64,000 nt of DNA from Bradyrhizobium sp. ISRA430 (GTDB taxonomy: Bacteria; Pseudomonadota; Alphaproteobacteria; Rhizobiales; Xanthobacteraceae). The position numbers and the translations under genes are program-made. Below the pieces are notes generated by a model, which did no database searches, was not told the DNA's origin, and worked only from the letters and a program-made list of their open reading frames with translations. Positions 59,986-63,295 of the stretch are shown here, in pieces; the stretch's first letter is position 1, and every line of letters starts with the position of its first letter. Where the stretch lies: the NCBI RefSeq assembly GCF_029909975.1, contig NZ_CP094516.1:1240001-1304000 (forward strand). The letters are read 5' to 3'.

Positions 59986-60021
59986 AAAGCCCCGCCGGTT
60001 CAAACGCCCGGCGGGGCTTTC
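59986..60021. terminator. strong bidirectional intrinsic terminator
   Basis: AAAGCCCCGCCGG (59986-59998) pairs perfectly with CCGGCGGGGCTTT (60008-60020), loop TTCAAACGC. It serves tRNA-Glu on the plus strand and the secreted-protein gene at 60044 on the minus strand. Confidence 0.9.
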
Positions 60022-60043
60022 GTTCGACGTGCGATCCTCGACT

Positions 60044-60391
60044 TCACGTTGTCTTGGTGAACATCGTCAGGACACCGTCGGCGATGTTGATAGCAACGAC
60101 CTGTGCCGAATTCAGGCCCTTGGCCTTGAGCACGGACACCGCCTGCGGTGTCGCGTCAATCGACTTCCGAAGCGACTGTATGTCTTCCTCGCTGGTGTGC
60201 GCGACGAGGTCATCGACCTTCGAGCGCACCGACGGTTGCAGTTCCTTGACGTCGACGACCTGTATGCTCCGTATCACCGTATCCGACCGAGCAGGCGCCT
60301 CCGATTGCGGTGGCGTTCCCTGAGCCAGCACGGAAGCCGGTATCCCGAAGGAGGCGGCTGCGATAAGGACGGTTGCCGCAAGCATGCGCAT
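60044..60391 (-). CDS. secreted hypothetical protein
   Basis: The 115-residue precursor has a signal peptide (MRMLAATVLIAAASFGIPAS, cut near LAQ) and a helical mature part with VIRSIQVVDVKELQPSVRSK, VDDLVAHTSEEDIQSLRKSI and a C-terminal GLNSAQVVAINIADGVLTMF. AAAGGAA precedes the ATG at 60391. It resembles small periplasmic proteins of Bradyrhizobium without assigned function. Confidence 0.75.
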   Translation of the reverse strand: MRMLAATVLIAAASFGIPASVLAQGTPPQSEAPARSDTVIRSIQVVDVKELQPSVRSKVDDLVAHTSEEDIQSLRKSIDATPQAVSVLKAKGLNSAQVVAINIADGVLTMFTKTT

Positions 60392-60542
60392 GATTGTTCC
60401 TTTCCAGATGGACGAACGACCAATTCTCCTACCGCCCAAATTTGGTTGGGGTCTGAATCTTCCATGACCATTCAGCGGAGCCAATGCGGCCACAATGCGC
60501 GCAAGACGCGTCACGCGATGCGTCGCAGAGTCGCGCGGTCGT

Positions 60543-61736
60543 TCAAGACGCGCGGTTGAGGAAGATCGGCAGCCCCCGCTTGCTGGAATAGAGAGGACGG
60601 TAGCGCTCCGTGTTGTATGTGCTGGCAACGTCCAGTCTGCGCGGCCCGAGCCTGGCGTCAGGAATGGGCACAAGGTCGTAGCGTCCCTCGACCAGCGCTG
60701 ACATGAGGCCGGTCTTGCCTTCCAGGATGGCATCATAGGCCATGTTGCCGAAAGTCAGAGCGACGAGCTTGTCGATGAAGTCAGGGTCGCCCGATCGCAG
60801 GTCGTAGGTGAGATCAGAGACGATGGTCTCCTCGCCAGCGCGCCGCTTGATCTCGTCGGCAAGTGCTTCGGCCACGCTCGTCCTCTTGCGGTGACCGTAG
60901 GCGTCAGGCTCGCCGTATTCCTGCACCTTGTAGCCCTCCCATTCGGCGCCTTCGCTCAGCACGATCAGCGCGTAGTTGCTTGGGTTGGCGCGCTTCTCCT
61001 CGAGCAGCAATCGGATCAGCTTGTCGAGATTGACTTTGTACTCCGGTATCACGCATCGGATCGAGGTCGCGTATGCAGTATAGAGCGCCGTAAATCCGGC
61101 ATCGCGGCCAAAGATGCGGAAAATGCCAACTCGCTCATGCGAGCCGATGGTGGTGCGCTGCCGCTGGATGGCATCGCTGGCGCGGGTAATCGCGGTCGAG
61201 AAGCCGATGCAATACTCGGTGTTGCGGACGTCGTTGTCCATCGTCTTCGGGATGGCGATGATCTTGACACCGAGTCCGTTGAGCTTATCCGCATAACTAA
61301 GTGTGTCGTCGCCGCCAATGGCGATGAGGTGTTCTATGCCGAGCCCCGACAGGTTCGCCAGCACCTGGCCGGTGACGTCCCAGGTCTTGGTTGCGACGCT
61401 GCCCTTGGTACTCTCCGAGACCGGAAGGTCTTGGCCAGCCAGATGATCGGGCAGCTTTTTCATTTTGGAGGGATTGGTGCGGCTCGAGTGCAGCACGGTA
61501 CCGCCGCGTCGATCGATGACGCGCGTGTTTTCGCGGTTGAGCGGGATGAGGTAGTGGGATTTGCTGGCGGGGTCGTCGAGGTTCAGGTGCGTGAGGGCCT
61601 CCCAGCCGCGGCGGAGACCGACGACCTCGATGTCGTCCTCGCTGCCGCGATAGGTCACGGTCTTGATGATTGCGTTGAGGCCGGGGACGTCGCCGCCGCC
61701 GGTGAGAATGCCAATGCGTTTTCTCGCCACGCCCAC
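60543..61736 (-). CDS. pfp: 6-phosphofructokinase with PPi-type active-site signature
   Basis: The 397-residue enzyme of the PFK-A fold phosphorylates fructose 6-phosphate. N-terminal GILTGGGDVPGLNAII and the catalytic IPKTMDNDV are clear. At the phosphoryl-donor site it reads GGDDT (141-145) rather than GGDGS, and PKTMDND (163-169) rather than PGTIDND. In the family this Asp/Lys combination marks PPi-dependent, reversible enzymes. ATP use cannot be excluded without assay. It lies 45 nt downstream of the FBP aldolase/phosphatase gene, and the two probably share one transcript. Confidence 0.88.
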   Translation of the reverse strand: MGVARKRIGILTGGGDVPGLNAIIKTVTYRGSEDDIEVVGLRRGWEALTHLNLDDPASKSHYLIPLNRENTRVIDRRGGTVLHSSRTNPSKMKKLPDHLAGQDLPVSESTKGSVATKTWDVTGQVLANLSGLGIEHLIAIGGDDTLSYADKLNGLGVKIIAIPKTMDNDVRNTEYCIGFSTAITRASDAIQRQRTTIGSHERVGIFRIFGRDAGFTALYTAYATSIRCVIPEYKVNLDKLIRLLLEEKRANPSNYALIVLSEGAEWEGYKVQEYGEPDAYGHRKRTSVAEALADEIKRRAGEETIVSDLTYDLRSGDPDFIDKLVALTFGNMAYDAILEGKTGLMSALVEGRYDLVPIPDARLGPRRLDVASTYNTERYRPLYSSKRGLPIFLNRAS

Positions 61737-61781
61737 CTCCCAATGTTGGCATGTCGCTATAGCGCCTGCGTCACACGTTCT

Positions 61782-62924
61782 CTATTCGGCCGCTTCCGGC
61801 TTGCGCTCCTCGCGCAGCCGGAAACGCTTCACGAGTGCGGATACGGTGTCGCGGAAGCCGCCATACTCCAATTCAGAATAGGGCAGCATCGCAGCACCGG
61901 ACCAGCCCTGGCTGCGCATCTCGATTGCCTTGCTTTGCGCGCGCCGGCGCACCTCGTCCCACGCCGGATTGTCGAAGAAATCTGTGTAGGACTCGGAAAA
62001 GCGGCCTTCCTTGTCGATCGAAAAACCGGCGCAGGAAGCGATCGGCAGGCAATACATGCCGGTCACCGGTGTATTGAGCGGGACGGGCATCAGCGGCATC
62101 ACGTGCGAGCCGCGCGCATCGCCGCCGACGAAGTGTGCCTTGGCGAAGGGAGAGACGATTTCCTCGGGCGCGGGGAAGATTCCCTGATTCCTGATGATCG
62201 CGACCGGATCATCCTTGCCGGTGTACTTGCCTGCGATCGCGTGAAGACGCTGCGCGGACACGGCGGCGGCGGCCTCGCCATGTGTCCGAGAAACGATGCG
62301 ATCAATGCCAAAGCGCTCGTTGTCGCGGAGCAGCGCGGCAATGTGGTAGTTATCCGCGGGCGCGTCGAGTTCGATCACGCTGTCACCGGCCGTGTTGTCC
62401 ATATCGATGATATGGAAACGGAATCCCTTGATCATCGGGGGCAGCATCAGCCCCGCGCAATACATGGGATCGGCGAAGGCGAGGTAGAGCGGCAGGTTGT
62501 AGGCGCCGGGGCCGCACTTGTCGGCGGCGAACACCATGAAGGACTCCGCCGGTCTCGGACCTGAGAGGTGGTCGAAGCTGAGTTCGGCGACGCCCGGGCC
62601 GGCACCGCGAATGTTCCCGGAAGGTGCGTCTGCGAGAAGATCCTGGCCGGCGCCGTAGAGGCCGGAGGTCTTCGCCACTGAAGTGGCGGCGAGAAACGCC
62701 TTCCAGGCGAATTGATGGATCTCGGAGCTCCCCTCGCCCCGCGTGTGCGTCATGATGATCGCGATGTCGTCGCCGGTGTGGCAGACAAAACCGTCGATCA
62801 AAAGACCATTGCAGATCGCCTTCGCGACCTCGCCTTCGACAGCCGCCATCATGCGTGAAGACGGTTTTGTATGCCCGCCAATGGAGCCAACGTCAGCCTT
62901 AATGACAGAAATGGTGAGTCTCAT
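61782..62924 (-). CDS. fbp: bifunctional fructose-1,6-bisphosphate aldolase/phosphatase (class V, archaeal type)
   Basis: The 380-residue protein matches the archaeal FBPA/P family that joins triose phosphates and dephosphorylates the product, making gluconeogenesis one-way. Visible residues: ISVIKADVGSIGGH (D11, H18), CHTGDDIAIIMTHTRGE (D52, D53), GAGQDLLAD, NIRGAGPGVAEL, and AGKYTGKDDP with the Schiff-base lysine K237 and metal aspartates D238-D239. The aldolase lysine is therefore retained. Start ATG 62924 follows GGGGAG. It is first in a unit with the PPi-type PFK and has an EcfG promoter. Confidence 0.9.
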   Translation of the reverse strand: MRLTISVIKADVGSIGGHTKPSSRMMAAVEGEVAKAICNGLLIDGFVCHTGDDIAIIMTHTRGEGSSEIHQFAWKAFLAATSVAKTSGLYGAGQDLLADAPSGNIRGAGPGVAELSFDHLSGPRPAESFMVFAADKCGPGAYNLPLYLAFADPMYCAGLMLPPMIKGFRFHIIDMDNTAGDSVIELDAPADNYHIAALLRDNERFGIDRIVSRTHGEAAAAVSAQRLHAIAGKYTGKDDPVAIIRNQGIFPAPEEIVSPFAKAHFVGGDARGSHVMPLMPVPLNTPVTGMYCLPIASCAGFSIDKEGRFSESYTDFFDNPAWDEVRRRAQSKAIEMRSQGWSGAAMLPYSELEYGGFRDTVSALVKRFRLREERKPEAAE

Positions 62925-63295
62925 GAGCGTTTCTCCCCGCACAAGCTCAGCGCCTCGGCCTCGGCGCTCGCTGCGCCGGGGCGACGGCGCTGCTCATTCG
63001 CGGAAACGAACGTCTCAAGTGGCGATTAGGTTCCAGCCGGCGGCTTAATTGCCGCACTGAGTGGACGCGCGGCAGGACCGGCGTGAGGCAATCATCCCCT
63101 GCTCGGCAATTGGACGCCGGACGATATCCGCCGCGTCAACGGCGTCCCCGACCTCCGCCGCGACAGTTGGTCTCCTCACAATCGCGCGCGAGTTTACCTG
63201 AAATTTACCCCCGCTCGCGAGCGCCGGTATCATTTGCTTAGAATTTGCCTGCTACCGTGGAAATACGGAAGGCAATTCCAACATCATTGGTCCTC
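62925..63295. other. divergent control region upstream of fbp and the PilZ gene
   Basis: No gene is convincing here. A 62-codon minus-strand frame at 63045-63233 lacks a signal or ribosome binding site. The region holds the EcfG promoter of fbp. Confidence 0.4.
63009..63034 (-). promoter_or_regulatory. EcfG-type promoter of the fbp-pfp unit
   Basis: On the minus strand GGAAC (63034-63030) and CGTT (63012-63009) are separated by 17 nt, exact consensus. The predicted leader is about 78 nt to the ATG at 62924. Confidence 0.65.

What the first reader, a model, noticed from the sequence alone, without database searches (positions are those of the whole stretch)
60543..63034. Stress-promoter-driven pair: PPi-type phosphofructokinase and archaeal-type FBP aldolase/phosphatase
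Two enzymes that work in opposite directions at the fructose 6-phosphate / fructose-1,6-bisphosphate step are encoded 45 nt apart, behind an exact EcfG-type promoter (63034-63009). The PFK reads GGDDT and PKTMDND, the residues that mark PPi use. The partner keeps both the Schiff-base lysine (K237 in YTGKDDP) and the metal aspartates, so both aldolase and phosphatase activities are expected. FBPA/P is best known from archaea and deep-branching bacteria. Inference: a reversible PPi-linked bypass of upper glycolysis switched on in the general stress response, conserving ATP during starvation or oxygen limitation.
Basis: partly seen in the sequence, partly recalled or inferred. Interest (0 to 1): 0.75.

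Follow-up and report, generated by a model that had tools for sequence, protein, structure and literature searches.

The report
Stress-promoter sugar-phosphate enzyme pair
Many Bradyrhizobium soil bacteria carry two sugar-phosphate enzymes side by side behind a conserved general-stress promoter, which suggests that cells under stress switch on a separate route for remaking or balancing sugar phosphates.

Summary
The genome is Bradyrhizobium-like. An FBP aldolase/phosphatase-type gene (ATG 62924) precedes a PFK with PPi-type residues (start 61730, 51-nt gap), behind GGAAC-N17-CGTT. That motif is not enriched genome-wide (185 hits, reversed control 175); conservation carries the case. In the genus, 79 of 89 FBPA/P genes have an exact site 119-143 nt before the IKADxGS codon, reversed pattern 0 of 89. 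All 91 genomes with a PF01950 match hold the PFK, 89 of them close by on the same strand, in swapped order in 14. A site within one mismatch of the EcfG consensus (exact in only one) precedes PFK in 20 of 24 genomes where it is first or alone, in 0 of 76 where it follows FBPA/P; few independent events underlie this. A 5' leader before FBPA/P is more conserved than the promoter spacer, matches no Rfam family and shows no covariation. The host also has housekeeping FBPases, class II aldolases and an H+-PPase, so the pair is a conditional extra. Gluconeogenic supply for trehalose and glycans is my likeliest reading; the ATP-saving glycolytic bypass is untested.

The parts
63009..63034 (-). EcfG-type promoter GGAAC-N17-CGTT
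   Evidence: Exact match; exact site at similar distance upstream of FBPA/P in 79 of 89 genomes of the genus, reversed-pattern control 0 of 89
62925..63002 (-). conserved 5' leader with two possible GCGCC/GGCGC hairpins; function unknown
   Evidence: 15 invariant and 37 nearly invariant positions over 86 distinct sequences, first codons included; 101.9 bits to its own model; no Rfam family at gathering; no covariation
61782..62924 (-). FBP aldolase/phosphatase-type protein (PF01950), 380 aa from ATG 62924
   Evidence: PF01950 480 bits; NF041126 448.5 bits, below its 520 cut-off; 46% identity to ST0318, 19 of 23 compared positions identical
61731..61781 (-). 51-nt intergenic stretch; decayed remnant of a PFK promoter is possible
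   Evidence: No EcfG-like site with 1 mismatch or fewer before PFK in any of 76 FBPA-first genomes; resembles the stretch that bears the site in PFK-first genomes (by eye)
60543..61730 (-). PPi-type 6-phosphofructokinase, 395 aa from GTG 61730
   Evidence: PF00365 210.9 bits; only PF00365 match in the genome (PfkB-type kinases not searched); GGDD, Lys in PKTMDND, Tyr148 (from 61736) four after the second Asp

Best explanation
A two-gene operon of the EcfG general stress response. Shown by sequence: the conserved promoter, the pairing, the host's PhyR-NepR-EcfG locus, the kept catalytic residues. Inferred: sigma-EcfG transcribes the operon on stress. FBPA/P then condenses triose phosphates and dephosphorylates FBP, so carbon moves one way to fructose 6-phosphate. 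The PPi-type PFK works as a reversible valve on FBP/F6P, mostly FBP + Pi to F6P + PPi when carbon is gluconeogenic. The F6P feeds trehalose and other protective glycans; trehalose synthesis is itself EcfG-controlled in B. diazoefficiens. The set is an addition to the housekeeping FBPases and aldolases.
For: Promoter conserved in 79 of 89. 91 of 91 genomes with a PF01950 match (one only a fragment) hold the PFK; 89 have both on one strand with under 300 bp between the matched stretches, order swapped in 14. A site within one mismatch precedes PFK in 20 of 24 genomes where it does not follow FBPA/P, 0 of 76 where it does. Window neighbours rarely travel with the pair: PilZ in 3, the small ORF at 60047 in 0 of 80 loci (53 Bradyrhizobium-like), so this is not just background synteny. 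NepR between ORFs read by eye as PhyR and EcfG. Catalytic residues. Characterised PPi-PFKs of Giardia, Methylobacterium nodulans and Methylosinus favour the reverse direction 3- to 13-fold in kcat/KM (PMC12203962, passages). Trehalose synthesis is EcfG-controlled (PMC8092242, abstract and passages).
Against: No assay or ecfG-dependence data seen. Motif not enriched genome-wide. GlpX, class I FBPase and class II aldolases already cover the reactions. The site before PFK is exact in only 1 of 24; 19 have one mismatch. The contrast rests on 2 starred (5 in all) independent switches, too few for a tree-aware test. 4 of 14 PFK-first and 6 of 75 FBPA-first genomes lack the exact site before FBPA/P. 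3 of 10 PFK-only genomes lack the PFK site. FBPA/P scores below the NCBIfam equivalog cut-off, and 4 of 23 compared positions differ from ST0318, among them Asp287 to Tyr. The EcfG regulon was not up in USDA110 bacteroids (PMC8125078, passages). Direction of flux is inferred.
Confidence: 0.55

Rival explanations
1. One reading: under energy or oxygen limitation PPi-PFK runs in the glycolytic direction with a housekeeping aldolase, saving ATP; FBPA/P serves the return direction.
For: GGDD-type PFK; two PF01116 aldolases are present; a passage notes that the Emden-Meyerhof pathway has been suggested to operate in B. japonicum (PMC1557990).
Against: FBPA/P would then oppose the PFK and form a PPi-hydrolysing cycle; the same passage says most free-living rhizobia use Entner-Doudoroff or pentose phosphate routes; PFK not detected in mannitol-grown B. 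diazoefficiens (PMC5996035); under microoxia the induced PFK there is another one, PfkB-type blr4659 (PMC6515984, passage).
Confidence: 0.2
2. PPi homeostasis: PFK and FBPA/P together form an F6P/FBP cycle that removes PPi made by nucleotide-sugar and polymer synthesis during stress.
For: PPi-PFKs hold PPi in check in some organisms (PMC12203962, passages); FBPA/P was always found with the PFK in the genus.
Against: The host has an H+-PPase, which recovers PPi energy; a soluble PPase was not searched for.
Confidence: 0.1
3. The PFK's true substrate is sedoheptulose 7-phosphate (SBP pathway), and the FBPA/P acts on SBP or FBP in the same sugar-phosphate exchange.
For: Some PPi-PFKs phosphorylate S7P (PMC12203962, passages).
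Against: No sequence mark tested here tells F6P from S7P; transaldolase was not searched for.
Confidence: 0.1
4. The EcfG-like motif is chance, and the two genes are ordinary constitutive metabolic genes.
For: 185 motif hits against 175 for the reversed control.
Against: 79 of 89 upstream regions keep the exact motif at similar distance, reversed pattern 0 of 89; a near-consensus site recurs before PFK when PFK stands first or alone.
Confidence: 0.05

Closest known systems
Archaeal FBP aldolase/phosphatase (S. tokodaii ST0318, PDB 3r1m/1umg; PDB 3t2b)
   Same: PF01950; 46% identity to ST0318; Tyr229 and Lys232 equivalents and aligned Asp/His/Gln residues kept
   Different: 448.5 bits against the NF041126 cut-off of 520; ST0318 Asp287 is Tyr here; in a soil alphaproteobacterium beside redundant FBPases; EcfG-type promoter
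PPi-dependent PFKs with the GGDD signature (e.g. Borrelia BbuPFK; M. nodulans and Methylosinus enzymes)
   Same: GGDD, Lys in PKTxDND, residue larger than Gly four after the Asp
   Different: No NCBIfam PPi-PFK model reached its cut-off; best is TIGR02483 PFK_mixed, 256.4 of 430.55 bits
EcfG (PhyR-NepR-EcfG) regulon of Bradyrhizobium
   Same: GGAAC-N16/17-CGTT site (consensus recalled); NepR with PhyR- and EcfG-like ORFs in this genome
   Different: No paper seen here lists these two genes as EcfG targets; the regulon paper (Gourion 2009) is not held
B. japonicum PFK bll2850
   Same: A PFK gene reported in B. japonicum (PMC1557990, passage)
   Different: The passage mentions no partner FBPA/P, PPi use or promoter; that bll2850 is the orthologue of this PFK is presumed, not tested

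Membership tests
FBP aldolase/phosphatase (PF01950) | Pfam PF01950 over its cut-off | tested here: met
   480 bits, cut-off 25, full length
FBP aldolase/phosphatase (PF01950) | Schiff-base Lys, Tyr and metal-site Asp/His/Gln (positions recalled from the archaeal structures) | tested here: met
   19 of 23 compared positions identical to ST0318, among them D11, H18, D52, D53, Q94, D135, K136, Y234, K237, D238, D239, Q247, R271, Y354; different at ST0318 241, 265, 286, 287
FBP aldolase/phosphatase (PF01950) | Both aldolase and phosphatase activity | not testable with these tools
   Needs the purified protein
NCBIfam equivalog NF041126 | Score over the curated cut-off of 520 bits | tested here: not met
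   448.5 bits; so not filed as this equivalog
PPi-dependent PFK | GGDD instead of GGDG | tested here: met
   GGDDT at 141 from 61736; kept in 101 of 101 PFKs of the genus and 18 of 19 others; signature as in PMC12203962
PPi-dependent PFK | Bulky residue in place of Gly four after the second Asp | tested here: met
   Tyr148, kept in 101 of 101 of the genus; criterion in PMC12203962
PPi-dependent PFK | PPi used, ATP not | not testable with these tools
   Needs an assay; the P(K/G)T motif is no indicator by itself
NCBIfam PPi-PFK models (TIGR02477, NF041103, NF005121) | Score over the curated cut-off | tested here: not met
   36.8 of 587.95, 113.3 of 550, 45.8 of 395 bits
EcfG regulon | GGAAC-N16/17-CGTT at promoter distance, conserved | tested here: met
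   79 of 89
EcfG regulon | Expression depends on ecfG | not testable with these tools
   No data seen in the papers held
Rfam leader RNAs (4227 families) | Match at the gathering score | tested here: not met
   Only three tRNAs in the window; best at the leader 20.5 bits against 70

The most novel reading that the evidence does not exclude
The 5' leader is a new cis-acting RNA of Bradyrhizobium that gates translation of the FBPA/P: AUGAGC at its 5' end can pair with GCUCAU over the start codon, around two hairpins with mutually exclusive partners. Stress (EcfG) and a second signal such as a sugar phosphate would then jointly switch on a gluconeogenic pair.
Probability: 0.25. Interest if true: 0.7.

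Novelty: new variant of a known kind. Interest (0 to 1): 0.5.

Why it matters
Which EcfG targets besides trehalose synthesis help Bradyrhizobium is open: PMC8092242 (passages) says that other EcfG-controlled functions contribute under competition. A conserved EcfG-linked module at the F6P/FBP step is a concrete, deletable candidate in bacteria related to legume inoculants. It would also make an FBPA/P a conditional isozyme beside other FBPases, rather than a sole gluconeogenic enzyme.

Tried and rejected
The promoter motif alone as proof: rejected, it is not enriched genome-wide. The leader as a small peptide: judged unlikely by eye, because indels in the first hairpin loop are not multiples of three and ATG is lost in several rows. 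Leader hairpins as a proven RNA structure: not shown; 95.6% of cells pair, but shuffles give 95.5%, the alternative pairing gives 93.8%, RNAalifold finds no double change. The leader as a repeat family: no second copy in the window (the opposite strand of the leader itself gives 21.6 bits), in 60 stretches (1.2 Mb of 8.56 Mb) of this genome, or in 34 loci with FBPA/P outside Bradyrhizobium; plasmid hits were short GC-rich matches inside genes. FBPA/P as a replacement for FBPase: rejected, 241 of 265 genus genomes have class I FBPase, and of the 20 listed of the 24 without only G508 and G610 have a PF01950 match. Recent archaeal origin: not supported; Dehalococcoidia rows lie among alphaproteobacterial ones on a quick tree (61 rows, 27 of 55 inner branches open; 27 rows of the genus used); direction of transfer not settled. 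A tree-aware test of gene order against PFK promoter: too few independent pairs. Intrinsic terminators on the minus strand of 60000-63200: none found. argC as a neighbour test: void, it lies beyond the 4-kb flanks; GST (5 of 80) lies near their edge. Not searched: class I aldolase PF00274, PfkB-type kinases, soluble PPase, transaldolase. Papers: ten searches; nothing on this pair or its EcfG control in the listings seen (20 of 44 listed) or in the passages read. Gourion 2009 is not held, so whether its tables list these genes is unknown.

Full report
What is there. The window lies in an 8.56 Mb single-contig genome; the nearest named proteins in a search are from Bradyrhizobium. On the minus strand an FBP aldolase/phosphatase-type gene (62924-61782) precedes a 6-phosphofructokinase gene (61730-60543). 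Pfam gives PF01950 at 480 bits and PF00365 at 210.9 bits. NCBIfam names the first FBP_aldo_phos but below its cut-off (448.5 of 520), and gives the PFK no family over cut-off, best PFK_mixed 256.4 of 430.55. The starts are moved from 62942 to 62924 and from 61736 to 61730 on the evidence of relatives, so the gap is 51 nt.

Residues. Against ST0318 (46% identity over 361 positions) 19 of 23 compared positions are identical, among them Lys237, Tyr234 and 12 further residues that I recall as metal, phosphate or Schiff-base sites; ST0318 positions 241, 265, 286 and 287 (Asp287 to Tyr) differ. Y.GKDDP is kept in 123 of 123 FBPA/Ps compared. The PFK has GGDD, Lys in PKTMDND and Tyr four after the second Asp; GGDDT and Tyr are kept in 101 of 101 PFKs of the genus. 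A review read in passages names GGDD and the bulky residue as marks of PPi use and warns that the Lys motif is not decisive (PMC12203962). PPi use is thus well predicted but unproven.

Promoter. GGAAC-N17-CGTT at 63034-63009 is exact. The pattern has 185 hits in the genome against 175 for its reverse, so by itself it means little. In the genus, 79 of 89 FBPA/P genes whose start could be placed have an exact site 119-143 nt before the IKADxGS codon (69 of 75 FBPA-first, 10 of 14 PFK-first); the reversed pattern and the opposite strand give 0 of 89. Two of 91 genomes were not counted: G525, where the start motif was not found, and G508, where the gene is a fragment. In an overlapping set of the best 80 of 546 relatives the site is exact in 48 of 53 Bradyrhizobium-like loci and in 1 of 27 others (Dongia, at -185; one of the 27 has only 72 nt upstream). 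The genome has NepR between ORFs that read as PhyR and EcfG (by eye).

Pairing. Of 265 genomes of the genus 91 match PF01950 and 101 hold a close PFK orthologue (112 genomes with a match less 11 with weak hits only). All 91 are among the 101. FBPA/P is first in 76 (51-274 nt between the matched stretches, which end short of the genes; 6.4 kb in G501), PFK first in 14 (183-227 nt), opposite in one with only a fragment (G508). Ten have PFK alone. Outside the genus no PFK was found in the flanks held of 27 loci. In the order sample 7 of 397 and in the class sample 5 of 385 genomes, own genome included, have PF01950, so the gene is rare and patchy. Of the 4 other class genomes only G871 has any match to the PFK query, a weak one. 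Window neighbours rarely travel with the pair: PilZ in 3 and the small ORF at 60047 in 0 of 80 loci; GST in 5, near the edge of the 4-kb flanks.

PFK promoter. Where PFK is first or alone, 20 of 24 genomes carry a site within one mismatch of GGAAC-N16/17-CGTT about 60 nt before the GILTGGGD codon, mostly reading GGAAAC...GCGTT and exact in only one. Where it follows FBPA/P, 0 of 76 do; their best sites have two mismatches in 19 and three or more in 57, against 11.5% with two and 1% with one in shuffled sequence, so a faint remnant is possible. Fisher p = 2e-17 ignores kinship. On the PFK tree there are 5 arrangement changes and 4 promoter changes, and only 2 independent pairs on starred branches, so the contrast is suggestive, not proven. 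The simplest reading is that PFK is kept under EcfG-type control in either order, through its own site or by read-through.

Leader. From about 7 nt after CGTT to the ATG lies a leader with AATGAGCAGCGCCG..CCCCGGCGCAG..GCGCCGAGG..GGCGC kept in nearly all of 86 distinct sequences from 89 genomes, more so than the promoter spacer. It matches no Rfam family, has no second copy in the window or in a 1.2 Mb sample of this genome (best 16.1 bits against 101.9), and was not found in 34 FBPA/P loci outside the genus. In G508 it survives at 98.3 bits beside a decayed FBPA/P. Folded alone, the window's leader is more stable than shuffles (z -2.86). Two pairings, 1:2 + 3:4 and 1:4 + 2:3 of its GCGCC/GGCGC blocks, fit about equally and neither shows covariation. 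It may act as RNA or as a DNA-level element.

Meaning. The genome also has GlpX, class I FBPase, two PF01116 aldolases and an H+-PPase. The pair is therefore an extra, stress-linked set. FBPA/P works towards F6P (recalled), PPi-PFK is reversible and in three characterised cases more efficient in the FBP to F6P direction, and EcfG drives trehalose synthesis in B. diazoefficiens (PMC8092242, abstract and passages). I therefore favour stress-time gluconeogenic supply of F6P over an ATP-saving glycolytic bypass, with moderate confidence.

Known or new. A rhizobial genome paper notes a PFK, bll2850, in B. japonicum and a suggestion that the Emden-Meyerhof pathway operates there (PMC1557990, passage). 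Another did not detect PFK in mannitol-grown cells and writes Bll2580 and Blr4659 (PMC5996035, passage). Blr4659, a PfkB-type kinase, is the one up in microoxia and in a phaR mutant (PMC6515984, PMC10888616, passages); PfkB-type genes were not searched here. Nothing on the pair or its EcfG control was seen in the ten paper searches' listings or the passages read. The EcfG regulon paper is not held, so membership may already be in its tables.

Noticed in passing
window 62925-63002 (-): Highly conserved 5' leader of FBPA/P, no Rfam match, found so far only in Bradyrhizobium before this gene.
   Followed up: partly
L224 (G508) 460-830: FBPA/P decayed: leader and a few codons kept, then a reversed C-terminal fragment, then a PFK.
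   Followed up: partly
   Followed up: no
L249 (G408): FBPA/P matches in two pieces 32 nt apart, so a frame break or an assembly error is possible.
   Followed up: no
L002 (G108): A very different FBPA/P (41% identity to the window's, 599 bits to PF01950) in another family of the same order; no PFK in the 1.5-kb flanks held.
   Followed up: no
Chloroflexota rows among L133-L155: FBPA/P of Dehalococcoidia/SAR202 is 70-78% identical to the window's and lies among alphaproteobacterial rows on a quick tree, which suggests transfer between the phyla.
   Followed up: partly
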